Positions 3-12,898 of a stretch of DNA of 64,000 bases are shown in pieces. Every line of letters starts with the position of its first letter. Within the stretch, counting starts at the first letter, position 1. The notes beneath the pieces are model-generated. The model made no database searches. It had not been told where the DNA came from and saw nothing but the letters and a program-made list of their open reading frames with translations. Location of the stretch: NCBI GenBank assembly GCA_029552825.1, contig JAKPDL010000060.1, positions 1 to 64,000 of the forward strand, written 5' to 3'. Position numbers and translations under genes: made by a program. The stretch comes from Bacteroidota bacterium. Its GTDB lineage: Bacteria > Bacteroidota > Bacteroidia > Bacteroidales > VadinHA17.

Positions 3-511
3 CGGCCCGCTGATACTGTTTATGAAGTTCAGGGAGTGATGCCGTTTTTATTCCCCCTTCACCCGGGAGTGTTTCCGGTTTGATGTCAGATCTGGAAAAA
101 TTTCTGCATTACGATAAAATTTTACTTCCGCATCTTATTAAAATTGCCGTAGCACATTATCAGTTTGAGACCATACATCCTTTTCTGGATGGCAACGGAA
201 GAAAGGGCATTGATATCACCTCACAGAAAGCCATTGATTCTTTTCAGCGAATTATTAGGATTAAAGAGTATTCTCAAAACATTCTGACTGCAATGGTGAA
301 GCGGCAGAAGAAGGCATTACGGCTGCTAGAATATTTATTCTCCAGGCCGGTTGGGGATATTAAATCGGTTGCGGAGTTTCTGGAAGCAGATTTTTCTACG
401 GCTAAACGTCTCGCAGATGAGCTTGTGAAAAACAATTTGTTGACAGAAGTAACGGGTTATAAGCGAAACAGGTTATTTATATTCGAAGAGTATTTAAGAT
501 TGTTTAAATGA
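3..511 (+). pseudogene. Broken Fic-domain protein gene (5' end outside the window)
   Basis: This is the remains of a Fic AMP-transferase with a C-terminal winged-helix region. The open part from 80 reads MSDLEKFLH, then HYQFETIHPFLDGNGRKG, which is the Fic loop (HPFxDGNGR). Two lesions are visible. Upstream, the RPAD segment that normally precedes MSDLEKF lies in another frame (from base 3) and stops at 78-80. After GNGRKG the sequence jumps straight to a KAIDSFQRI segment that normally lies about 70 residues further on, so the Fic core helices after the loop are deleted. The rest (AEFLEADFSTAKRLADELVKNN) resembles the usual C-terminal HTH. It is unlikely to make an active enzyme. An intact but different Fic gene lies at 9168-10271. 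Confidence 0.75.
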
Positions 512-1006: not shown

Positions 1007-1279
1007 TTGAACTATTTTACTGCTCAATTGATGGAAAGAGGTAATGATATAAGGTTTATTCAAAAGTTGTTGGGTTCTTCAGAGCTTAAAACGATATTGA
1101 TTTATACTTATTTGAGCAAGAAAAGTCTTACAAATATTGCAAGTCCGATTGATGCAATTTTCAAGCATAATAAACTAATTAACAATGATTTGACAAACGA
1201 TGATGTATATCCATATAAATGTAATTTTACTTTTACAGGGATGTTGTGTGAAAATGCTATAGGAAATAAATATAATTAA
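1007..1279 (+). pseudogene. C-terminal remnant of a tyrosine recombinase (XerC/D or integron-integrase type)
   Basis: The peptide FTAQLMERGNDIRFIQKLL, followed by GSSELKTILIYTYLSKKSL, matches the end of the catalytic domain of tyrosine recombinases (family pattern [23 protein letters not shown], then KTTEIYTHVS). The catalytic Tyr is kept (IYTY), but the HxxR box and everything before it are missing, the His after LLG is Ser, and the only possible start is a TTG. It is therefore a dead fragment. It ends two bases before the DUF4338 gene and suggests that a recombinase once neighboured this cassette. Confidence 0.7.
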
Positions 1280-1281
1280 TT

Positions 1282-2409
1282 ATGCACAGAGAAGAATTAA
1301 AAAATAGACTAATAGATGCTTTGAAAGCACAGGGATTTAAAATTAATCCTCATGTTCAACCAACTACACAAAATAAATTTACTTATAGATATTTACAGCA
1401 AACGTCTAGACTTGAACAAATTTCTTTTCATAAAAAATTCTTAAAGGCCAATGCCAAAAAAGTTAAAGAATTTCTTTTAAATATAAATAATTTCAATCCT
1501 CACAATATTGATTTAGAGTTACGAGAAGTTAAACCAGATAGTATTGAAGAACTAATTTTTAAATGGTGGAATCTTGTATGGTGGAGTGTACCATATCAAA
1601 GAGCTTACGGGCGTCAAATGCGTTTTGTACTTTGGGATATAGGACATAATGCTCCATTTGGGCTTATTGGACTTCAAAGTCCTGTTTTAAAGATGGCAGT
1701 AAGGGATAATTATTTAAATATACCAAAAGATGAGTTGGATTTGTGGGTAAATAAATCTATGCAAGCTCAACGGCTTGGTGCACTGCCTCCGTACAACTAC
1801 CTCATTGGTGGGAAAATGACAGCTTTAGCAATGACCTCCAATGAATTAAGAAAATGTTATAGAGAAAAGTATAAAAACTACAAAACAGAAATACAGGGCA
1901 GAATAATCGAACCAGAATTACTTTTTATAACAACAACCAGTGCTTTTGGGAAAAGCAGTATTTATAATAGGTTAAAATATAAGAATCAACCTGTAGCAAA
2001 AAGTTTAGGTTATACAAAAGGGGCTGGTTCTTTTCATATTCCCGAAAACTTGTACAAGGAAATACGGGAATTTCTTAAAGACAATGGTGTTAATGTTAGT
2101 ACTACTTTTGGTAACGGACCATCCCGCAAAATTAAGTTACTTTATACAGCATTCAGATTGTTAAAAGTACCTGATTATTCATATCATAACTTAAAACGAG
2201 AATTTTTCTTGTTTCCGCTTGCTTCCAATTTGCAAGATATCATTCAAAAAAAGGAAACTCCAATTTATTATAATAGGCCTCTTAAAGATTTAGTTGATTT
2301 CTGGAAAGAACGATGGTGTTTACCAAGAGCAGAGCGAAAGGAAGAATGGAAACGATATAAAGGGGAATTTTTTTTTAATCAATTACTGCAAAAACACGAT
2401 TTGAATTAA
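1282..2409 (+). CDS. DUF4338 (DruA-like) protein, first gene of a DUF4338-NurA-HerA operon
   Basis: A 375-residue protein. Residues about 115-185 carry the DUF4338 signature: FVLWDIGHNAPFGLIGL, then SPVLKMAVRDN, then SMQAQRLGALPPYNYLIGGK, then a region starting ELLFITTTSAFGKSS. The same domain defines DruA of Druantia anti-phage systems, where its biochemical role is not clear to me. The N-terminal ~100 residues are basic and unrecognised. The stop codon is separated by one base from the ATG of the NurA-like gene, so the two are surely co-transcribed. Base composition is more AT-rich than the housekeeping genes to the right, consistent with transfer. Family assignment is fairly firm; a role in defence is inferred from domain and partners. 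Confidence 0.75.
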   Translation: MHREELKNRLIDALKAQGFKINPHVQPTTQNKFTYRYLQQTSRLEQISFHKKFLKANAKKVKEFLLNINNFNPHNIDLELREVKPDSIEELIFKWWNLVWWSVPYQRAYGRQMRFVLWDIGHNAPFGLIGLQSPVLKMAVRDNYLNIPKDELDLWVNKSMQAQRLGALPPYNYLIGGKMTALAMTSNELRKCYREKYKNYKTEIQGRIIEPELLFITTTSAFGKSSIYNRLKYKNQPVAKSLGYTKGAGSFHIPENLYKEIREFLKDNGVNVSTTFGNGPSRKIKLLYTAFRLLKVPDYSYHNLKREFFLFPLASNLQDIIQKKETPIYYNRPLKDLVDFWKERWCLPRAERKEEWKRYKGEFFFNQLLQKHDLN

Positions 2410-2410
2410 T

Positions 2411-3559
2411 ATGGAAAATATTGAGCAGCCTTTTTACCAGTTACCAGAAGCATTAGTTGAAGAAATGCTTTTAAAAAGTCAGAAGATTGGGGATTTTCTT
2501 TTGCAATCATTAACTGAAGTAAGTAAGAAAAAGGAAATATACAGAAACGAATTATTTAATACTGGTCTATTAAAGCGCGATGCAGATTTACCTCATATTT
2601 CACCTCCCACAACCTGTGGAATTGATGGTTCTTATGTGGTAGAACGGTTGATGGCAACCGATTTGGTTGCTGTAGCAGCAGTTGCAATAGAAGGATTAAC
2701 ACCACCATCAGAAAAAAGGGAATGGGGAAAGCCATATCACAAAGTTTTTATTAGTTCAGTAAGTCATAATCCCGATACAACTGTTGTTGTGAGAGGAATT
2801 ATGTGGGAAATGGAATTAATACTTGCAGCTGAGGCACCTCACGATATAGTATTTCTAGATGGTTCTATTACAAACCCTTTTTTAAATTTAAATACTGCGA
2901 TAAGTAAGTTTGAAGATTTTAGAAACAATGAAGTTGGAAAAACTCTTGCAGAAAATTTTGAAAAATTTTTAGATAGTTATTTAAAAATTGTTTGTTCCAA
3001 CCGAACGGATAAACTTTGGGTAGGTCTTCCAAAATATACATCTAAAAGAGAAATTGGAAAGAAATTCAATTGGCCTACAAATTTTGATGATAGAGCTATG
3101 CTTACCTCTTTGTTGAAAGCTGGTGAATACATCACTCCTATTAAATATGAACAACCTAACGAAAAATGGCATATTGGAATGGAAGGTTTAACAACATACT
3201 ATAAATCAGAATTTGATAAAAAGTTGGAACAAATTGTTAATTCAATCAATAACTTGCATGTTTGTTATTACAAACCACACCCATATACGCCAGCCCTTCG
3301 TATTGAAGTCCCCCAATCAATTTGCACCAATAAGTATCAATTAGCAACTTTGTTAAATGCAATTAATTTTCAATGTGGTACGCCAGGAATATTAGAACCG
3401 TATCCGCTTTTCATGTCAGACAGAATGGTTAAAAATCTAAGTAAAGCTATTCCTGCTTTTCGCCAAACAGCAACGAGACAAATAGCGGAAAAATATGAAG
3501 ATGACTTATCAGAAATTTTTTTCAATATGAATAGTTATAGAACCGAAAACGGAAAATGA
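2411..3559 (+). CDS. NurA-domain nuclease
   Basis: A 382-residue protein with the two acidic motifs of NurA nucleases: GIDGSYVVERL (Asp about residue 71) and IVFLDGSITNP (Asp about residue 148), which in the family coordinate Mn2+ in an RNase-H-like fold. C-terminal GTPGILEPYPLFMSDRMVK also fits NurA. In archaea NurA works with the HerA hexameric translocase to resect DNA ends; here a HerA-like gene follows one base downstream (TGATATG junction), so a NurA-HerA nuclease-translocase complex is the likely product. In bacteria this pair often sits in defence loci. Residue numbers are estimates from the coordinates. Confidence 0.8.
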   Translation: MENIEQPFYQLPEALVEEMLLKSQKIGDFLLQSLTEVSKKKEIYRNELFNTGLLKRDADLPHISPPTTCGIDGSYVVERLMATDLVAVAAVAIEGLTPPSEKREWGKPYHKVFISSVSHNPDTTVVVRGIMWEMELILAAEAPHDIVFLDGSITNPFLNLNTAISKFEDFRNNEVGKTLAENFEKFLDSYLKIVCSNRTDKLWVGLPKYTSKREIGKKFNWPTNFDDRAMLTSLLKAGEYITPIKYEQPNEKWHIGMEGLTTYYKSEFDKKLEQIVNSINNLHVCYYKPHPYTPALRIEVPQSICTNKYQLATLLNAINFQCGTPGILEPYPLFMSDRMVKNLSKAIPAFRQTATRQIAEKYEDDLSEIFFNMNSYRTENGK

Positions 3560-3560
3560 T

Positions 3561-5330
3561 ATGGCAGAAGAATTAAACATAAATAAGATCATTGATGCTG
3601 CTGAGAGGATTGGAACCATTGGTTCTCCGTCTTCAACTAAAGAATTGACTTTAGACATTCTGGGCTCTGCAGTAGAAAAAAAACTTGTAGGCGAGTTGGC
3701 ATTCTTCAAATACCTGCAGGATGGTATGGAAAATTATGCACTTGGACAAATTACAGATGTGGAACTTAGAAATGCTTGGCTGGAAGACCCTACCATGCGC
3801 TCATTGGCAAGACAAAGAGGCCAGGTGAATCCTATTAGCGGACAGCAGGATACTCATCTTGGTATAATGACACTCAGTGCAGTGTTTGCAAACAATGGCA
3901 ATGGTTATGAGCCAAGTATTTTAGGTACAGTTCCGCAAACAGGAACAAATATACAATTAGCAAATGATGAGTTAATAAAAACTTTGCTATATCAGTATCA
4001 GCAAGAAATATTCTATTTGGGAAATGTCTATGGTTCAAAACCACGGCTGCCATTATGGTTCAAGCATTTCGATACTGGAAAAAATGGAGCAGGAGAAGCA
4101 TATCATCTTGGAATTTTTGGAAAAACAGGATCTGGTAAATCTGTATTGGCAAAAATGGTTTTGACGGCATATATGCGTTATCCAAAAATGGCAATATTGG
4201 TTATTGACCCTCAAGGAGAATTTTCAAAAGATTTTCGAGAAGAAGTAACAACTGGGCAATTTAAATTACCATTAAAGAAGATTGCCGATTATAATGGTAA
4301 AGAAACATTTGTTATATCAGTAAAAAACCTTGTACTAGACAGATGGGAGTTGTTCGAAGAAATCTTGTATGAATCACTTTTTTTTGAAAGATTGTCTGTT
4401 CCTTATGGAGAAAACCGGGCACTAGCTTGCAATGTCATACGTGAAAGATTGGAACGCCAGAATTTCAAATTGGAAAACTTATATGAAAGAAAAACCTTTG
4501 ATGCTGCTTGGGAAATACTTTCCAATACTGATGTACAAGTTGAATTTTATCGTTCAGAGGCCTCTCGCACAAGATTTAACAATAAACTAATTGCATCAAA
4601 TAAAGACGATTTTTTTAACCAATACTGGACACCTGTAACAAAACTATTTCGAAAAGATAGAGAAAATGCAAGAACCGCAGACTCAGCACTTACGTGGCTC
4701 TTGTCTGTTGAAGATAAAGAGGGAAATCAAAAGAAAACTAGGCCAATGCTCATAATTGACTTATCAAAAGAGCAAGCAGAAGGACTTTATTGGACAGAAA
4801 AAATACAGGCCCTTGTAATAAAACGAATATTGGATGGTCTAAACTATACGGCAGAACAATTTTACAAAGGAGGAAAAAACCTTAATACTCTTGTCGTAAT
4901 TGATGAAGCACATCGTTTAGCACCTCGAGAAACCCCACAAAATGAAAGTGAAGCAAGAGTTAGAAGTGTACTTGTTGATGCAGCAAGAACTACACGAAAA
5001 TATGGTTTGGGATGGTTATTTATCAGTCAGACATTGTCCAGTTTGCACAAGGAAATTATTTCGCAATTAAGGATTAATTTCTTTGGCTTTGGCTTATCAA
5101 TGGGAACAGAGTTTATGGCATTGAAGGAGTTAGCAGGTGGTGACCAAAATGCTCTTAAATTATATCAATCATTTCGTGACCCACATAGTGCTTTTGACTC
5201 TAAGTCAAGGCAGTATTCCTTTATGACAATAGGTCCGGTATCTCCATTATCATTTGCAGGAACACCTTTATTTTTTACAGCATTTAATGAAGTGCAACAA
5301 TTATTAGATGCAAATAATATTAGAGTATAG
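3561..5330 (+). CDS. HerA-like DNA translocase ATPase
   Basis: A 589-residue FtsK/HerA-clade P-loop ATPase. Walker A is GIFGKTGSGKSVLAK near residue 190; after it comes ILVIDPQGEFS. Walker B is LVVIDEAHRLAPRETPQN near 446, followed by the arginine-rich SVLVDAARTTRKYGLGWLF and the sensor-like FISQTLSSL. The family forms hexamers that pump double-stranded DNA and activate a NurA partner. It is the third gene of a tight operon (1-nt gaps). About 60 residues more than typical compact HerA proteins lie at the N-terminus, which may hold the barrel domain that docks the nuclease. Confidence in the ATPase family is high; the in vivo role as defence translocase is inference. Confidence 0.85.
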   Translation: MAEELNINKIIDAAERIGTIGSPSSTKELTLDILGSAVEKKLVGELAFFKYLQDGMENYALGQITDVELRNAWLEDPTMRSLARQRGQVNPISGQQDTHLGIMTLSAVFANNGNGYEPSILGTVPQTGTNIQLANDELIKTLLYQYQQEIFYLGNVYGSKPRLPLWFKHFDTGKNGAGEAYHLGIFGKTGSGKSVLAKMVLTAYMRYPKMAILVIDPQGEFSKDFREEVTTGQFKLPLKKIADYNGKETFVISVKNLVLDRWELFEEILYESLFFERLSVPYGENRALACNVIRERLERQNFKLENLYERKTFDAAWEILSNTDVQVEFYRSEASRTRFNNKLIASNKDDFFNQYWTPVTKLFRKDRENARTADSALTWLLSVEDKEGNQKKTRPMLIIDLSKEQAEGLYWTEKIQALVIKRILDGLNYTAEQFYKGGKNLNTLVVIDEAHRLAPRETPQNESEARVRSVLVDAARTTRKYGLGWLFISQTLSSLHKEIISQLRINFFGFGLSMGTEFMALKELAGGDQNALKLYQSFRDPHSAFDSKSRQYSFMTIGPVSPLSFAGTPLFFTAFNEVQQLLDANNIRV

Positions 5331-5338
5331 ACATCAGC

Positions 5339-5468
5339 ACACAACAAAGCGTATATGCCATAAGGGTTTCAGTGGGTATTCAGGCGTTGTAGCCCGCTCA
5401 AACTTTCGTGTAGGCGGTCAGGATACTGCCCCGCAATCCCTTACGGCACAAACACTCAGCCGTTAGGT
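5339..5468. repeat. attC-like long imperfect hairpin at the end of the DUF4338-NurA-HerA operon
   Basis: Starting 8 bases after the HerA stop codon, a ~130-bp imperfect palindrome begins with ACACAAC (5339-5345) and ends with GTTAGGT (5462-5468). The end fits the integron core site GTTRRRY exactly; the beginning matches its complement ACCTAAC at 5 of 7 positions. The arms pair well inside: TGCCATAAGGGTTT against AATCCCTTACGGCA (12 of 14), then less perfectly inward. Length, terminal boxes, unpaired bases and position just 3' of a gene are those of an attC recombination site. Related-looking hairpins are, to my recollection, scattered in Bacteroidota. No integrase or second site is visible in the window. 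Confidence 0.5.
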
Positions 5469-5570: not shown

Positions 5571-6029
5571 ATGGATAGGAAAGTACATCAAACTCAATGG
5601 GCCGAACAATTCGACGTTGCTCATGAAATGACACGTCGAGGTTATCTTGTAGCTTTTACAATGGGAAATGCTCCAACTACGGACTTATTATGTAAAAGTC
5701 CACATGGAATCGAGTTTTCAGTTCAAGTAAAATCTCTCAGATCCAAAAATTATTTCCTTTATCAGGATTCATTAATTAATACTAGCTCAAATTTGTTTTT
5801 TGTTTTTGTACTAGTCCCGACAACAATTGGATTCAATAATCTTAATCCACCAGAATACTTTGTTCTGAATAAGCAACAATTCTTGAAAGTGGTTGAAGAG
5901 GAAAATTATAGGCTTAAAGAAGAAGAAAAGAGAAGGGGTCGCCCATTTGCCAAATTTTCTCCTGGGATAAATTATAGAACAATCAACAAAGACGAATTCC
6001 GTAATGCTTGGCATAATCTACCTGCATAA
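5571..6029 (+). CDS. Small PD-(D/E)XK-like endonuclease-fold protein
   Basis: A 152-residue protein of unknown family. The N-terminal third has the layout of a PD-(D/E)XK nuclease or Hjc-like core: helix EQFDVAHEMTRRGY (Glu12, Glu19), NAPTTDLLCKS with Asp38, then FSVQVKSLRSKN giving Gln52-x-Lys54. The variant Q-x-K in place of E-x-K is seen in several restriction-enzyme-like families. The rest is charged and unrecognised. It lies 240 bases after the HerA gene on the other side of the attC-like hairpin, so it may be a separate cassette or an accessory nuclease. The ATG start is preceded by an AT-rich leader without Shine-Dalgarno. Confidence 0.5.
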   Translation: MDRKVHQTQWAEQFDVAHEMTRRGYLVAFTMGNAPTTDLLCKSPHGIEFSVQVKSLRSKNYFLYQDSLINTSSNLFFVFVLVPTTIGFNNLNPPEYFVLNKQQFLKVVEEENYRLKEEEKRRGRPFAKFSPGINYRTINKDEFRNAWHNLPA

Positions 6030-6625
6030 AAGGTAGTGTCCATAATTTTTTGTAAATGAAAAGGCAGCTGCATTTGGGACACCAACCAGGCTGGAGCCGG
6101 AAAACGAGCTCAAAGTCTGATTAGTTAGGAGGAAAAATTTGTTTTTCAATATATCGAGCTGGTTGTTATACTTGTAATAGTCGTAGTAGTTACAGTTCTG
6201 CCTTAAAAGCTGTTTATCTGGCTCTTGCTAATGTTGAGTCTGGATATTTCATAGCAACCTAACCCCGGTAAATGGGAAAATATTTCACCGCTTTCCGAAA
6301 TAAATATTTATTACAAAATCCAAATCTGATACTCAATGTTTCAATTTTGATATTGGACGGATTCTAAAACCAAACCCCCGTCATCCAGAAAATTACGACA
6401 ATTGAGAATCAGGGAGCAATGTTAACACCCTTTGGGCCTGTTTGCCTTTTTTAACCCCCTGTAAATCTGTCCAATTTACAGTTTTCAAAGCCAACAAAAG
6501 TGAATAGAATAACACAATAAGAAAATGTATTAACTTAGCAGGATGCCGTTAACTTCTGTAAGGCGAGTCAGATATAACGAGGGGCAGGCTTAAAAGTGTC
6601 ATATATGAAAAGATAATACTTGTTT
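6030..6625. other. Intergenic, no convincing gene
   Basis: About 600 bases of AT-rich sequence between the small nuclease-like gene and hsdR. The phrase GTGTCCATAATTTTTTGTAA at 6036-6055 resembles an insertion-sequence end, but no partner repeat or transposase was found. A frame at about 6140-6206 would encode a short valine-rich hydrophobic peptide but lacks a start codon. The hsdR promoter is presumably in the last 100 bases; TAACTTAG at 6532-6539 is one mismatch from TAnnTTTG. Confidence 0.4.
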
Positions 6626-9154
6626 ATGTCTCAAAAAGAAGCAAAAGCACGGATAAAAATAAACAAACTCCTAGAAGAAGCAGGATGGCGATTCTTTGAC
6701 GATGAAAATGGAAAGGCAAATATTCTCCTTGAGAATAACGTTAAAATCACAAGAGAAAAATTAGATGAGTTAGGTGAGGACTTTGAAAAAACAGGAAACG
6801 GATTTATTGATTTTCTGCTGCTCGATGAACGGGGTTTCCCTTTCATCGTTTTAGAGGCAAAGGCAGAGGACAAAAACCCACTGTTTGGCAAAGAACAAGC
6901 CCGCCGTTATGCTCTGTCACAAAACTGCCGCTTTATAATTCTTTCCAATGGAAATATCCATTACTTCTGGGACCTTGAAAGAGGCAATCCTCACATCATC
7001 AGCCGTTTCCCTTCGCCTGAAACAGTTAAAGGCTATGCTGATTTCAAACCCGATAAAAACAGACTGGTCGCTGAAACCGTAGAAGATGACTATATTGTTC
7101 TGACTCAAAAACCAGATTATAAAACAGATCCTTCATATATCAACGCAGAAAGCCGGAAGAGCTATATCGAAATCAACAAACTACGATTTTTACGAAAATA
7201 TCAACTCAATGCTGTCAGGGCAATTCAAAAAGCTGTAGAACAAGGGAAAGACCGTTTTCTGTTTGAAATGGCTACAGGTACAGGAAAAACTCTTGTATCA
7301 GCCGCAGTTATAAAACTATTTTTGAGAACCGGCAATGCCCGGCGTGTTTTGTTCCTGGTTGACCGTCTCGAGCTTGAAGACCAGGCTTATAAAGCTTTCG
7401 TATCATATCTGAAAAATGACTACCAGACTGTTATCTATAAAGAAAACAGGGATGACTGGAGGAAAGCAGATATTGTAGTTTCAACAGTTCAAACCTTTTT
7501 ATCAAAGAACCGATATAAAAGGCTTTTTTCACCCGATGATTTCGACCTTGTTATTTCCGATGAAGCTCATCGCAGTATCGGAGGTAATAGCAGAGCGGTT
7601 TTTGAATACTTTATAGGTTATAAATTGGGTTTGACTGCCACACCCAAAGACTACCTGAAACATATCGACATGGCACAGCTTGGCGAAAATGATCCGCGAC
7701 AGCTGGAACGCCGTTTATTACTCGACACATACAAAACTTTTGGGTGTGAAAACGGGGAACCTACTTTCCGCTACTCTCTTGTTGAGGGTGTAAAAGATGG
7801 TTTCCTTGTTAATCCGGTTGTTGTTGATGCAAGAACGGAAATAACCACACAACTGCTTTCTGACGAGGGTTATGCAGTAATAACGCAAAACGAAGAAGGA
7901 GAAGAAGCAGAAGAAATATTTGTCCATAAGGATTTTGAAAAAAAGTTTTTTTCCGAAAACACAAACAGAGCATTTTGCAAAGCCTTTCTGGAAAATGCTT
8001 ACCGCGATCCAGTAAGCGGAGAGATTGGAAAAACAATTGTCTATTGTGTTTCGCAAAACCATGCCGCAAAAATTACACAGATTCTCAATGAAATGGCACA
8101 CCAGATGTTCCCCGGGAAATATCAGTCCGATTTTGCTATTCAGGTAACTTCTGTAATTCCCGACTCTCAGCAGTTTGCTATCAATTTTACAAACAACCGC
8201 CTTTCAGGCACGGGAAATTTTAATTCGTCTTACAGAACAAGCAAAACACGTGTTTGTGTTACTGTAGGTATGATGACAACAGGCTATGATTGCCCTGATA
8301 TTTTGAACCTCTGCCTTATGAGACCAATATTTTCCCCAACTGATTTTATTCAGATTAAAGGACGGGGAACAAGAAAATATAACTTTTCAATTGATATAAT
8401 TGACCCGCAACTGAAAGCTCAAATAGGAGATAAGCAAAAAGAAAATTATAAGATGTTCGATTTCTTCGCAAACTGTGAATACTTTGAAGAGAAATTTAAT
8501 TACGATGAAGTGCTTAAACTTCCCAGACCCGGTCCGGGAGAACCTGCCATATCAGAGGTCTGGGAGCCATCGGGCATTGATGAGTATGTAAGCACACGAG
8601 CGGACCAGATAACACATTTGCAGCATACCATTGTTGGTCCCGACGGCATGAAAATTGACAGAATGTATTTTGAGAAATTTGAAAAAACAATTATCCAGCA
8701 CCCGGTTATTAAGGAACAGGCTGAAGCCGGCAAGTGGGATGAACTGATGGATTATCTGGAAAAGCATATACTTGACAAACCTGAAGAATATTTTACCCTT
8801 GAAAAACTCCGTGCTTCCATTCAAATCGACCGCCGTATTACCATGCGGGAAATTATAGAAAAGATTTTCGGCATGATCCCCTATTTCAAAACAAGGGATG
8901 AACTTCTGGATGAAGAGTTTGACAGGTTCGACAGCAGATATTTGCCAAAAGAAGAGTATTTTACTTATGCAAAAACTGTTTTTAAGGCATATATCCTCGA
9001 CGCCGACTTCAGAGCTATTATTGATAACAAAAATTTTGCACTCTTAAATGTTTCTCCCTACGGCGAGGCATATAAAAAGTTACCTTACGACCTGCGAAAA
9101 GCAATCCCGGAATATATTAAGGATTTTGTACCACTAAATAAGTTTGTTGCATAA
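6626..9154 (+). CDS. hsdR: Type I restriction enzyme R subunit (translocase/endonuclease)
   Basis: An 842-residue HsdR of the EcoEI-like size class. The N-terminal nuclease domain shows GFIDFLLLDERGFP then FIVLEAKAEDKN (Asp about 62, Glu-Ala-Lys about 76-78), the PD-(D/E)XK site. Superfamily 2 helicase motifs follow: ATGTGKTLVSA near 216, VISDEAHRSIGG near 311, LGLTATP, and the C-lobe VGMMTTGYDCPDILNL and IQIKGRGTRK. The last ~220 residues match the EcoEI R C-terminal region. I chose ATG 6626; a TTG two codons upstream is possible. It needs the M/S partner encoded at 10358-12898 for ATP-driven translocation and cutting of unmodified DNA. Confidence 0.92.
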   Translation: MSQKEAKARIKINKLLEEAGWRFFDDENGKANILLENNVKITREKLDELGEDFEKTGNGFIDFLLLDERGFPFIVLEAKAEDKNPLFGKEQARRYALSQNCRFIILSNGNIHYFWDLERGNPHIISRFPSPETVKGYADFKPDKNRLVAETVEDDYIVLTQKPDYKTDPSYINAESRKSYIEINKLRFLRKYQLNAVRAIQKAVEQGKDRFLFEMATGTGKTLVSAAVIKLFLRTGNARRVLFLVDRLELEDQAYKAFVSYLKNDYQTVIYKENRDDWRKADIVVSTVQTFLSKNRYKRLFSPDDFDLVISDEAHRSIGGNSRAVFEYFIGYKLGLTATPKDYLKHIDMAQLGENDPRQLERRLLLDTYKTFGCENGEPTFRYSLVEGVKDGFLVNPVVVDARTEITTQLLSDEGYAVITQNEEGEEAEEIFVHKDFEKKFFSENTNRAFCKAFLENAYRDPVSGEIGKTIVYCVSQNHAAKITQILNEMAHQMFPGKYQSDFAIQVTSVIPDSQQFAINFTNNRLSGTGNFNSSYRTSKTRVCVTVGMMTTGYDCPDILNLCLMRPIFSPTDFIQIKGRGTRKYNFSIDIIDPQLKAQIGDKQKENYKMFDFFANCEYFEEKFNYDEVLKLPRPGPGEPAISEVWEPSGIDEYVSTRADQITHLQHTIVGPDGMKIDRMYFEKFEKTIIQHPVIKEQAEAGKWDELMDYLEKHILDKPEEYFTLEKLRASIQIDRRITMREIIEKIFGMIPYFKTRDELLDEEFDRFDSRYLPKEEYFTYAKTVFKAYILDADFRAIIDNKNFALLNVSPYGEAYKKLPYDLRKAIPEYIKDFVPLNKFVA

Positions 9155-9167
9155 ATGTGAGCCTGTT

Positions 9168-10271
9168 ATGAACGCTTATTCATTGTCACCAATTCCACCT
9201 CACCGTGATGTGGAAACCAAGCCAATACTTAAACAGCTTGCTTTAGCTCATCGCCACCTTGCAGAATTAAAAGGAACCGCTAAAACTATCCCTAATGAAG
9301 TTATTTTGATAAATACTTTGCCACTTCTTGAAGCAAAGGATAGCTCTGCAATTGAAAACATTATCACTACTCACGACGAAATTTATAAAGAAGACCTTTT
9401 TGAAAATTTTATATCTAACCCAAATGTAAAAGAAGTACATAAATATGCCAAGGCAGTACAGGTAGGTTTTAAATCCCTGCAACAAAACGAATTAATTACC
9501 AATAAAATAATTTTATCTCTTCAGGAAATTATCGTTGAAAATAATGCAGGTTTACGAAAGTTGCCCGGAACGGAGCTTAAAAATCTCGCGACAGGTGAAA
9601 CTGTTTACATCCCCCCACAGGATTATAACACCATTGTAAGCCTTATGCAAAATCTTGAAGAATATATTAATGACGATTCTTTGCACCCTGTTGACCCATT
9701 AATTAAAATGGCAATTATTCATTATCAGTTCGAATCAATTCATCCATTTTACGATGGAAACGGACGAACAGGTAGGATACTTAATATCCTCTACTTAGTC
9801 CAAAAAGGTTTGCTTGATTTACCCATACTTTATTTAAGCAGCTATATTATCAAAACTAAAATAGATTACTATCGTTTACTTCAGGAGGTCAGGGACAAAG
9901 AAAATTGGGAAGACTGGATTTTGTATATGCTCAAAGGAGTAGAGATTACATCAAAAGGTACAATCTATCTTGTCAAAGAAATATCAAGACTTATGATGGA
10001 ATATAAACATAAGATAAGAACACAATATAAATTTTATTCACAGGACTTAATCAATAACCTTTTTAAACATCCATATACTAAGATTGAGTATTTGCAGAAA
10101 GATTTGAATATTCACCGTCATACTGCTGCCAGTTATCTCGAAGAGCTTGTTAAAGGCGGGTTGCTAAGAAAAGAAAAAGTAGGACGAAACAATTATTTCA
10201 TTAACGAACCTTTGTTTTTATTATTCAAAAACTTTGACTTAAGTGCAGAAATTTCATCATACCCCGTTTAA
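9168..10271 (+). CDS. Fic family protein AMP-transferase with winged-helix C-terminus, inside the type I RM locus
   Basis: A 367-residue protein from ATG 9168, 13 bases after the hsdR stop; a TTG upstream would overlap hsdR. The active-site loop HPFYDGNGRTGR starts near residue 192, complete with catalytic His and the phosphate-binding GNGRTGR. An N-terminal SSAIEN near residue 60 fits the (S/T)xxxE(G/N) inhibitory motif, so this would be a self-inhibited class II Fic enzyme that transfers AMP to a protein Ser/Thr/Tyr. The C-terminus (YLQKDLNIHRHTAASYLEEL) is a winged helix typical of this subgroup and could bind DNA. Fic genes between type I RM subunits are a known association; target unknown. 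Confidence 0.88.
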   Translation: MNAYSLSPIPPHRDVETKPILKQLALAHRHLAELKGTAKTIPNEVILINTLPLLEAKDSSAIENIITTHDEIYKEDLFENFISNPNVKEVHKYAKAVQVGFKSLQQNELITNKIILSLQEIIVENNAGLRKLPGTELKNLATGETVYIPPQDYNTIVSLMQNLEEYINDDSLHPVDPLIKMAIIHYQFESIHPFYDGNGRTGRILNILYLVQKGLLDLPILYLSSYIIKTKIDYYRLLQEVRDKENWEDWILYMLKGVEITSKGTIYLVKEISRLMMEYKHKIRTQYKFYSQDLINNLFKHPYTKIEYLQKDLNIHRHTAASYLEELVKGGLLRKEKVGRNNYFINEPLFLLFKNFDLSAEISSYPV

Positions 10272-10343
10272 TATGTCGAAAAAATTAAATATTTTCGACA
10301 TATTATAATAAATATGGTGAAAAAATTAAATATTTTCAATATT
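10272..10343. promoter_or_regulatory. Two operator-like 31-bp repeats before the hsdM/hsdS gene
   Basis: Copy 1 (10272-10302) is an inverted repeat: TATGTCGAAAA and TTTTCGACATA flank a 9-bp AT centre. Copy 2 (10313-10343) matches it at 26 of 31 positions, with the 19-bp core GAAAAAATTAAATATTTTC identical. The two start 41 bp apart, close to four helical turns, so dimers on both would face the same side. This fills almost the whole 86-bp gap between fic and the M/S gene. It suggests a repressor site for methylase or Fic expression; the Fic winged helix is one candidate binder. Confidence 0.6.
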
Positions 10344-10357
10344 CAGAAAATAAAACC

Positions 10358-12898
10358 ATGCTTGACAACGAAACCAAACGACGAATTGATACCGCCCGCG
10401 ATATTCTTGTAGGTAAAATACCCGACCCAAAAAGTCAGGTAGAGCAGATTACCATTGCTCTTGTGTATAAGTTCATGGACGATATGGATAAGGAAGCCGT
10501 TGAACTAGGCGGCAACCCCCTCTTTTTTACCGGAGATTACGAGCGTTACGGCTGGAGCAAGATATTTGATCCTCGCATCGGTGGATACGAAATGCTCAAT
10601 CTGTACGCCGAAGCCATTACCCGCATGAGCCAGAATCCCAATCTTCCTGAACTCTTTCGTAATATTTTCAAAAACGCCTACCTTCCTTACCGCGACCCCG
10701 AAACGCTCAAGCTGTTTTTAAAGACCATCAACGAATTTACCTACGACCACTCCGAGCGACTGGGTGATGCCTTTGAGTATCTGCTATCGGTTATGAGTAG
10801 CCAGGGCGATGCCGGGCAATTCCGCACTCCGCGCCATATTATCGATTTTATGGTGGAAATAGTGAGTCCGCAGAAACACGAAACCATCCTTGACCCTGCC
10901 TGTGGAACTGCTGGATTCTTGATTTCTGCATACAAACATATTTTAAGAGAAAACACCTCACCTAAATATCGCAATCAGAACGGTACCAATAGAGGCGACT
11001 TACTAAATTCTGAAGAACGTAAAAAACTACTCACCAATTTCAAAGGTTACGATATATCGCCCGATATGGTGCGGCTTTCGCTGGTGAATATGTATCTGCA
11101 TGGCTTTGTTCAGCCGCAGATAATGGAATACGATACCCTGACCAGTGAAGAACGCTGGAATGAATACGCTGATGTGATACTTGCCAATCCGCCTTTTATG
11201 ACACCGAAAGGCGGCATCAAACCTCATAAACGCTTTAGTGTACAGAGCAACCGAAGCGAAGTACTTTTTGTTGATTATATTGCCGAGCACCTTACCCCTG
11301 CTGGCAGGGCTGCGGTGATTGTACCCGAAGGCATTATCTTCCAGAGTGCAAATGCGTATAAGCAACTGCGTAAAATGCTGGTCGAAAACCATCTTTATGC
11401 GGTAGTATCGCTTCCTGCAGGTGTGTTTAATCCCTATTCCGGGGTGAAGACCTCTATACTGCTTATGGACAGGCAACTTGCAAAGAAGACCGATTCTATT
11501 CTATTTGTAAAGATCGAAAACGACGGCTTTGATCTTGGTGCCCAGCGCCGACCAATAGACAAAAACGACCTGCCCGATGCGTTGAATGTTATTAAGGATT
11601 ATATTACTGCTGTCAGAAATAATACACCGGAATTATTTATTGCAGAAGAAAAGCCCTGTAATGCTTTGCTGGTAAAAAAAGAAAAGCTGGCAGAAAATGG
11701 GGAATACAACCTGACCGGGGATAGATACAGAATTGTAGAAAAACGAAAACACCAGAAATGGCCGATGGTGAGGTTGATGAAAGTATGTGAGATTGAAAGT
11801 GGTTCTCGCCAAAAAGGAGGTGCGGTAAGTGAAGGTGTCTATAGTATTGGCGGTGAACAGATAGCAGAAGATAGTTCAATCCGTTTTGATAAAATGAAAT
11901 ATATCACCAGAGAACATTTCTCAGAAATGAGACGAGGAATTCTCAGAGAGAACGATGTATTAATGGTAAAAGATGGTGCAACCACTGGAAAAATTGGATT
12001 TTGGAAATATTCCTACGAAGCGGCAGTAAATGAGCATGTTTATATTTTTCGTGCTAATGAATATATCGAAAGTTATTTTCTTTTTAGAATATTACAGTCG
12101 GAAAAGTTTCAAGATTTATTGAAACCGTATAAAAAAGGAATAATCGGTGGTGTGAGTTTGGAGATTCAAAATATCCAAATCCCCCTTCCGCCGCTTGAGG
12201 TCCAGCGCGAGATTGTTGCCGAGATAGAGGGTTACCAGAAGCTGATTGACGGCTGCCGTCAGGTGGTCGATTCGTGGAAACCGCAGATTGATATTGACCC
12301 CAAATGGCCAATGGTGAAGTTGGGGGAGGTGTGTGAATTGATAAGGGGAATTACTTTTAGTAAAAAAGATCAAGTAGAAATAGAGAATGATAACACCGTA
12401 AGAATAGCAACAACAAAAGCTGCACAAGAGAATGGAATTGTTGAAAAAGATTTGTATTATGTAAACAAGAAACTTGTTACAGATGAAGAAAAATTACTTA
12501 GAGATAAAGATATTTTGATATCTACAGCAAATAGTTTGAACTTATTAGGTCGTACTACTTTTGTAAGAAATATAAATTATAAATGCTCATTCGGTGCTTT
12601 TATGACTTTAATTAGAATTACTAATGATAAAGTTTTACCGGAATACATATATTATCAATTAAACAGTTCTAAATCAAAAGAATATTTTTTAAAAGTTGCA
12701 AATACAACAACAAATATTTCTAATTTATCTCATACTGACTTAAAAAACCTCCAAATCCCCCTCCCGCCGCTTGAAGTCCAGCAAAAAATTGTTGCCAAAA
12801 TCGAAGCCGAACGCAAGGTGATAGATGGCTGCAGGGAGCTTATCAAAGTTTACGAGGAGAAAATTAAGCAGGTGATTGATAAGGTGTGGGGTGAGTGA
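10358..12898 (+). CDS. Fused type I methyltransferase and specificity subunit (HsdM-HsdS)
   Basis: An 846-residue fusion. Residues 1-460 are HsdM: an N-terminal helical domain, QFRTPRHIIDFMVEIV, motif I DPACGTAGFL near 178 (S-adenosylmethionine binding) and motif IV ILANPPFM near 274 (N6-adenine methylation). From about 466 it continues into HsdS with two target-recognition domains, each opening with KWPMVxLxxVCE and each closing with IPLPPLEVQ plus a coiled-coil spacer. The enzyme should methylate a bipartite site and guide HsdR. Family members usually encode M and S separately. The second recognition domain (about 12350-12745) is clearly more AT-rich than its flanks, as expected from domain exchange. 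Confidence 0.9.
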   Translation: MLDNETKRRIDTARDILVGKIPDPKSQVEQITIALVYKFMDDMDKEAVELGGNPLFFTGDYERYGWSKIFDPRIGGYEMLNLYAEAITRMSQNPNLPELFRNIFKNAYLPYRDPETLKLFLKTINEFTYDHSERLGDAFEYLLSVMSSQGDAGQFRTPRHIIDFMVEIVSPQKHETILDPACGTAGFLISAYKHILRENTSPKYRNQNGTNRGDLLNSEERKKLLTNFKGYDISPDMVRLSLVNMYLHGFVQPQIMEYDTLTSEERWNEYADVILANPPFMTPKGGIKPHKRFSVQSNRSEVLFVDYIAEHLTPAGRAAVIVPEGIIFQSANAYKQLRKMLVENHLYAVVSLPAGVFNPYSGVKTSILLMDRQLAKKTDSILFVKIENDGFDLGAQRRPIDKNDLPDALNVIKDYITAVRNNTPELFIAEEKPCNALLVKKEKLAENGEYNLTGDRYRIVEKRKHQKWPMVRLMKVCEIESGSRQKGGAVSEGVYSIGGEQIAEDSSIRFDKMKYITREHFSEMRRGILRENDVLMVKDGATTGKIGFWKYSYEAAVNEHVYIFRANEYIESYFLFRILQSEKFQDLLKPYKKGIIGGVSLEIQNIQIPLPPLEVQREIVAEIEGYQKLIDGCRQVVDSWKPQIDIDPKWPMVKLGEVCELIRGITFSKKDQVEIENDNTVRIATTKAAQENGIVEKDLYYVNKKLVTDEEKLLRDKDILISTANSLNLLGRTTFVRNINYKCSFGAFMTLIRITNDKVLPEYIYYQLNSSKSKEYFLKVANTTTNISNLSHTDLKNLQIPLPPLEVQQKIVAKIEAERKVIDGCRELIKVYEEKIKQVIDKVWGE
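11756..12322. repeat. Direct repeat at the start of each target-recognition domain
   Basis: AAATGGCCGATGGTGAGGTT at 11756-11775 recurs with a few changes as AAATGGCCAATGGTGAAGTT at 12302-12321. It encodes KWPMV(R/K)L at the start of both HsdS recognition domains. It is part of the duplicated architecture of the gene and provides homology for swapping a domain. Confidence 0.75.
12175..12796. repeat. 46-bp direct repeat after each target-recognition domain
   Basis: The segment at 12175-12220 (encoding QIPLPPLEVQREIVA) is repeated at 12751-12796 (QIPLPPLEVQQKIVA) with only a few base changes. These are the conserved regions bounding the two HsdS recognition domains and are natural crossover points. 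Confidence 0.8.

What the first reader, a model, noticed from the sequence alone, without database searches (positions are those of the whole stretch)
1282..5330. DUF4338-NurA-HerA operon: candidate undescribed anti-phage system
Three genes with 1-base gaps encode a DruA-like DUF4338 protein, a NurA nuclease and a HerA translocase. DruA marks Druantia, but the other Druantia genes (large DruE helicase and so on) are absent; NurA-HerA pairs are a translocase-nuclease module seen in other defence loci. I do not recall a named system with exactly these three parts. The operon is AT-rich, sits next to restriction genes, and is bounded by a recombinase remnant and an attC-like hairpin, all signs of a mobile defence cassette.
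Basis: partly seen in the sequence, partly recalled or inferred. Interest (0 to 1): 0.8.

Follow-up and report, generated by a model that had tools for sequence, protein, structure and literature searches.

The report
Mobile DruA–NurA–HerA candidate defence operon
Three genes found side by side in a few bacteria and bacterial viruses probably form a small, travelling DNA-destroying defence unit that pairs a known DNA-shredding motor (HerA–NurA) with DruA, a protein so far known from a different phage-defence system.

Summary
Window 1282-5330 (+) encodes DruA (DUF4338), a NurA nuclease and a HerA-type ATPase with 1-base gaps. The same gene order occurs in four further loci: another Saprospiraceae MAG and three viral contigs (two near phage replication or recombination genes, one beside a tail gene). 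Identity falls to about 30%, and purifying selection between the two closest copies is strong. The unit is not Druantia: no DruB-E or DruH lies in the operon, and NurA-HerA takes the effector place. PADLOC models cover DruA and HerA but have no NurA, and no paper in the searched library mentions the three together. An attC-like site of a family dispersed through Saprospiraceae follows herA, and an integrase C-terminal remnant precedes druA, so here the operon looks like an integron cassette beside a type I R-M locus. NurA keeps its catalytic triad and HerA its Walker motifs. Trees of DruA conflict strongly with those of NurA and HerA, so the pair has partnered different DruA lineages. Most likely HerA-NurA destroys incoming DNA and DruA supplies self/non-self discrimination, perhaps by marking host DNA. 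Anti-phage function and DruA's activity are inferred, not shown. New variant of a known kind.

The parts
1007..1279 (+). remnant of an integron-integrase/XerC-D-type tyrosine recombinase (C-terminal ~47 residues only, then an unrelated tail)
   Evidence: TIGR02249 positions 268-314/315, E=1e-9
1282..2409 (+). druA: DruA/DUF4338 protein, 375 aa
   Evidence: PF14236 E=4e-63; PADLOC DruA1 E=6e-81; 76% identical homologue in L002
2411..3559 (+). nurA: NurA-family nuclease, 382 aa; conserved acidic triad D72, E135, D150
   Evidence: PF09376 E=3e-13; model matches NurA structures 9x1m Z 12.8, 2ygk Z 12.1; triad invariant in five loci, residues checked
3561..5330 (+). herA: HerA/FtsK-type translocase ATPase, 589 aa; Walker A K193, Walker B D448/E449, arginines 476/479, sensor Q490
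   Evidence: PF01935 E=6e-13; profile matches anti-phage HerA and TdpA structures; motifs invariant and read off
5343..5465 (+). attC-like site, 12 bases after the herA stop
   Evidence: member of a ~122-bp family in 19/98 Saprospiraceae genomes with sharp AAC...GTTA edges
5571..6029 (+). 152-aa ORF beyond the attC-like site; no family found; role unknown, probably not part of the operon
   Evidence: no significant hit in Pfam, PADLOC or NCBIfam
6620..12898 (+). neighbouring type I R-M locus: HsdR-like 6620-9154, SoFic-type Fic 9144-10271, HsdM-HsdS fusion 10358-12898 (context, not part)
   Evidence: Pfam and PADLOC matches

Best explanation
A mobile three-gene DNA-targeting defence operon. 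HerA is a hexameric dsDNA translocase that feeds DNA ends into a NurA dimer, which degrades both strands (inferred from characterised HerA-NurA complexes). DruA provides self/non-self discrimination. The most likely specific version (about 40% given defence) is that DruA, a GNAT-like protein, marks the cell's own DNA or otherwise shields it, so that HerA-NurA destroys unmarked incoming DNA, in the manner of a restriction-modification pair. Shown here: the family identities, intact catalytic motifs, conserved operon, purifying selection, mobility and R-M neighbours. Inferred: complex formation, DNA degradation, defence, and everything about DruA's activity.
For: Same gene order in five loci. 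dN/dS window vs L002 of 0.11 (druA), 0.055 (nurA), 0.031 (herA N-terminal part). Catalytic motifs invariant. The NurA model matches NurA and also the TdpAB complex's NurA-like subunit (8wfd chain G, Z 8.2); the HerA profile matches anti-phage HerA and TdpA structures. HerA-nuclease complexes are proven phage-defence engines: DUF4297-HerA (PMC11291478). Archaeal HerA-NurA digests both strands, and its authors propose antiviral use (PMC12977600). R-M genes lie near the triple in the window and immediately after it in L059 (type IIG, E=6e-234). Carried on an attC-flanked segment and in three phage-like contigs. Trees show the NurA-HerA pair has partnered different DruA lineages. For a marking role: other NurA-HerA pairs share operons with N6/N4 methyltransferases (L043, L045) or adjoin type I R-M (L044); phage DruA relatives occur without Druantia genes, beside Mom (L085) or ParB (L083) genes; DUF4338 has been described as a GNAT domain (PMC10853773), and the low-confidence DruA model's best matches are GNATs (SpeG Z 6.9).
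Against: No phage assay exists. The DruA model is poor (mean pLDDT 56) and Z of about 7 is within the range of unrelated folds. Profile comparison of DruA with the Mom family is negative (hhalign probability 0.5%). Only five loci are known. NurA-HerA relatives without DruA exist (Rhizobium, Euzebya, Natribaculum), so DruA is not obligatory for the wider pair. In Druantia I DruA works with quite different partners, which fits a sensor or adaptor as well as a marker.
Confidence: 0.6

Rival explanations
1. Defence, but DruA is a sensor or recruiter: it recognises a phage molecule or DNA structure and switches on HerA-NurA, and does not mark DNA.
For: DruA is swappable between lineages while NurA-HerA is kept, as expected of a recognition module; it also serves in Druantia I with unrelated partners; DruA is less constrained than its partners (dN/dS 0.11 against 0.055 and 0.031).
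Against: Phage DruA relatives occur apart from any Druantia effector (L076, L083, L085, L086), which suggests a self-contained activity; GNAT-like description of DUF4338.
Confidence: 0.35
2. A mobile-element function rather than cell defence: phages and integrons use the triple for their own DNA processing, or to break down competitor or host DNA.
For: Three of five loci lie in phage-like contigs, two of them near replication or recombination genes.
Against: In the window and L059 it sits near R-M genes; the phage contigs carrying it are unrelated in layout, and no match to HerA or NurA was found in 50,697 GenBank phage records, so it is not a core phage module; phages often carry defence genes.
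Confidence: 0.15
3. Ordinary housekeeping DNA-end resection by a HerA-NurA repair pair with DruA as bystander.
For: HerA-NurA was first described in end resection, and canonical NurA genes exist in other Bacteroidota (38 of 395 genomes have a NurA).
Against: These proteins are far from the canonical repair NurA (triple profile scores only 6.7 bits or less against them); rare and sporadic distribution; tight DruA linkage across five loci; phage and integron carriage.
Confidence: 0.05

Closest known systems
Druantia type I (DruABCDE)
   Same: Shares DruA; the Druantia-type DruAs on plasmids are about 30% identical to the window's DruA.
   Different: DruB, DruC, DruD and the DruE helicase are absent from the operon; NurA-HerA is present instead.
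HerA-nuclease defence systems (DUF4297-HerA, SIR2-HerA/Nezha)
   Same: HerA-type hexameric ATPase paired with an effector enzyme; the HerA profile matches solved anti-phage HerA structures.
   Different: The nuclease is NurA (RNase H-like fold), not DUF4297 or SIR2; a third gene, druA, is added.
HerA-NurA end-processing complex of archaea and Deinococcus
   Same: Same two kinds of enzyme; the NurA model matches 9x1m, 2ygk and 7f6d.
   Different: Sequence-distant, mobile, rare, and with DruA in these five loci.
TdpABC phosphorothioation-linked defence (TdpA/TdpAB structures 8wet, 8wfd)
   Same: HerA-like TdpA and NurA-like TdpB; a modification protein (TdpC) completes the set. The function of TdpABC is from own knowledge; no paper on it was in the library.
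   Different: DruA in place of TdpC; no phosphorothioation gene is present.
Mom DNA-modification family (PF25680)
   Same: GNAT-type fold proposed for both (Mom: own knowledge); a Mom gene lies beside a DruA-like gene in phage contig L085.
   Different: No detectable sequence relationship to DruA.

Membership tests
Druantia type I | DruA (DUF4338) | tested here: met
   PF14236 E=4e-63; PADLOC DruA1 E=6e-81
Druantia type I | DruB, DruC, DruD and DruE in the operon | tested here: not met
   ORFs flanking the operon are an integrase remnant, a 152-aa ORF and type I R-M genes; none matched DruB-E. The contig begins 1281 bases before druA
Druantia type III | DruH plus DruE | tested here: not met
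   neither matched in the operon or its immediate flanks
HerA-nuclease anti-phage systems | HerA/FtsK-type ATPase with Walker A/B and arginine finger | tested here: met
HerA-nuclease anti-phage systems | partner is DUF4297 or SIR2 | tested here: not met
   partner is NurA; no DUF4297 or SIR2 hit
HerA-nuclease anti-phage systems | demonstrated phage protection | not testable with these tools
   needs an infection assay
NurA nuclease family | NurA domain and catalytic acidic triad | tested here: met
   PF09376 above cut-off; fold match Z 12.8; D72/E135/D150 invariant in five loci
TdpABC | phosphorothioation protein TdpC | tested here: not met
   third gene is DruA; nothing else is in the operon
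Mom-like DNA modification enzymes | sequence relationship to PF25680 | tested here: not met
   hhalign of DruA against an 11-member Mom alignment: probability 0.5%; Pfam scan of DruA shows no Mom hit
GNAT acetyltransferases (DruA) | GNAT fold | tested here: inconclusive
   low-confidence model (pLDDT 56); best VIA matches are GNATs at Z 6.9; published description of DUF4338 as GNAT (PMC10853773)
Integron gene cassette | attC site just after the gene(s) | tested here: met
   attC-like family member 12 bases after the herA stop
Integron gene cassette | attI or attC at the 5' junction and a functional integrase | tested here: inconclusive
   only an integrase C-terminal remnant at 1007-1279; no 5' site was identified; the contig starts at base 1

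The most novel reading that the evidence does not exclude
DruA is a DNA-modifying acyltransferase that marks self DNA, and HerA-NurA degrades unmarked DNA: a restriction-modification system with a non-methyl mark and a processive motor-nuclease. This would also explain DruA's role in Druantia.
Probability: 0.22. Interest if true: 0.85.

Novelty: new variant of a known kind. Interest (0 to 1): 0.6.

Why it matters
DruA's function is unknown although it helps define Druantia type I. A minimal three-gene unit in which DruA works with two enzymes of known biochemistry makes that role directly testable. The recurring theme of HerA-NurA with a DNA-modification or R-M neighbour (methyltransferases, TdpAB, now DruA) suggests a modular class of motor-nuclease restriction systems that the defence models searched here do not list.

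Tried and rejected
DruA as a Mom homologue: profile comparison negative (controls 116, 117). The unknown gene upstream of the Rhizobium NurA-HerA as a distant DruA: negative. PDB sequence searches with the NurA and DruA profiles: nothing significant. Fold search with the DruA model: no significant Foldseek match. Literature for DruA/DUF4338 + NurA + HerA: none; a TdpABC paper: none in the library. The HerA viral scan with the single protein, and the first NurA and DruA viral scans, found nothing; broader alignments found the viral loci. Rfam and tRNA scans of the window: none. Druantia membership rejected for lack of its other genes. A strict attC consensus scan of the window gave no site; the element's outer core departs from the RYYYAAC consensus, so it was tested by comparing relatives instead.

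Full report
Observation. Pfam assigns DruA (E=4e-63), NurA (3e-13) and DUF87/HerA (6e-13), all above the curated cut-offs. PADLOC matches DruA1 and several HerA models and has no hit for NurA. The NurA assignment is also supported by structure: the AlphaFold model (pLDDT 67.5) matches HerA-NurA of Thermococcus (Z 12.8), Sulfolobus NurA (Z 12.1), Deinococcus HerA-NurA (Z 8.2) and chain G of the TdpAB complex (Z 8.2). The acidic residues D72, E135 and D150 are invariant in all five triple loci and have a spacing close to that of the catalytic residues of the Pyrococcus enzyme (own knowledge). HerA keeps Walker A (GKTGSGKS), Walker B (VVIDEAH) and the downstream arginines and glutamine.

Conservation. 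Four more loci hold the same three genes in the same order. L002 is a Saprospiraceae MAG contig (DruA 76%, NurA 81%, HerA N-terminal part 91%), in which herA runs off the contig end and the upstream flank differs. L050, L051 and L059 are IMG/VR contigs with HerA 61, 42 and 35% identical to the window's; in L050 druA is cut by the contig start. L051 places the triple between a phage serine integrase and a single-strand-binding protein, helicase and primase block; L059 has a minor-tail gene just before it and a type IIG R-M gene overlapping its end; L050 is followed by sigma-factor-like and exonuclease genes. Between the window and L002 synonymous change is high (dS 1.4-1.95) while dN/dS is 0.11, 0.055 and 0.031, so all three are under strong purifying selection. 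The triple is rare. In a sample of 395 Bacteroidota genomes DruA is in 9 and NurA in 38; only the window's genome and one other have both, and only the window's has them on one contig. The HerA profile finds only the window (the tool scored at most three candidates per genome). Among 98 genomes of the same family only distant HerA matches turn up besides the window. No HerA or NurA match appears in 50,697 GenBank phage records.

Modularity. DruA trees put L050, L051 and L059 together (with a lone viral DruA, L076) and the window with L002 elsewhere; HerA and NurA trees put the window with L050. Forcing window+L002+L050 together in the DruA tree is rejected (AU p=2e-9), as is forcing L050+L051+L059 together in HerA (3e-7) or NurA (4e-4). 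Long branches are present and the groups were chosen after seeing the identity table, so the p-values are optimistic, but the conflict is large in log-likelihood units (32-131). In the HerA tree, pairs without DruA (Rhizobium; Euzebya and the Corynebacterium-Rhodococcus-Dietzia group) interleave with triples. The simplest reading is that the NurA-HerA pair has gained, lost or exchanged DruA more than once.

Surroundings. In the window the operon lies between the last ~47 residues of an integron-type integrase (1016-1156) and an attC-like site. That site (5343-5465) is one of a family: 19 of 98 genomes of the family hold matches, and the nine best relatives, aligned with the window copy, share a ~122-bp body from AAC to GTTA with unrelated flanks. 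The integrase is not functional as it stands, and no 5' recombination site was identified, so 'integron cassette' is likely but not proven. A type I R-M locus with a SoFic-type Fic gene follows at 6620-12898.

Mechanism. HerA-nuclease complexes are established phage-defence engines: in DUF4297-HerA both activities are required, the complex degrades dsDNA and infected cells lose their DNA (PMC11291478). Thermococcus HerA-NurA digests both strands of dsDNA, and its authors suggest antiviral use (PMC12977600). So HerA-NurA here is very probably a DNA-destroying motor-nuclease that must be restrained or targeted, and DruA is the candidate for that. Three lines favour, without proving, a marking role. 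(a) Other Bacteroidota NurA-HerA pairs share operons with N6/N4 methyltransferases (L043, L045) or adjoin type I R-M (L044), and TdpA and TdpB, which work with a phosphorothioation protein (own knowledge), are the same kinds of enzyme. (b) DruA relatives occur in phage contigs without Druantia partners, in one case beside a Mom modification gene (E=7e-52), in another beside ParB. (c) DUF4338 has been described as a GNAT domain (PMC10853773), and the best structural matches of the weak DruA model are GNATs. Against it, DruA shows no sequence link to Mom and the model is poor. A sensor or adaptor role remains nearly as likely.

Known or new. It is not Druantia: no DruB-E or DruH. It is not DUF4297-HerA or SIR2-HerA: the nuclease differs. 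It is not TdpABC: there is no TdpC. No paper in the library mentions DruA or DUF4338 with NurA and HerA. A newer defence catalogue could still list it. The best filing is a new variant of HerA-nuclease defence with DruA as a third component. That it is a defence system at all is an inference from parts, mobility and neighbours.

Noticed in passing
window 5343-5465; L098-L106: A dispersed ~122-bp attC-like repeat family in Saprospiraceae (19 of 98 sampled genomes) with sharp AAC...GTTA edges; possibly an uncharacterised integron cassette population in this family.
   Followed up: partly
L043 4392-9144 (-), L045 4020-8364 (+), L044 5441-13060 (+): Divergent HerA-NurA pairs: in L043 and L045 in one operon with an N6/N4 DNA methyltransferase, in L044 next to type I R-M genes; look like further motor-nuclease R-M-type loci.
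   Followed up: partly
L085 660-2806; L083 6177-7963: Phage contigs with a DruA-like gene near a Mom-family gene (L085) or directly after a ParB-like gene (L083).
   Followed up: partly
L003 3737-9967: Rhizobium leguminosarum plasmid pRlX5 has NurA-HerA with an unknown 387-aa gene upstream and a GHKL-ATPase gene downstream instead of DruA.
   Followed up: partly
L074 6842-12984, L075 6848-13000: DruA beside an oppositely oriented three-gene set; two of its proteins match PADLOC CARF6 models (checked in L074), a further DruA context outside Druantia.
   Followed up: no
window 80-511: Partial SoFic-type Fic gene (C-terminal part) near the contig start; a second, complete SoFic lies inside the R-M locus at 9144-10271.
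   Followed up: no
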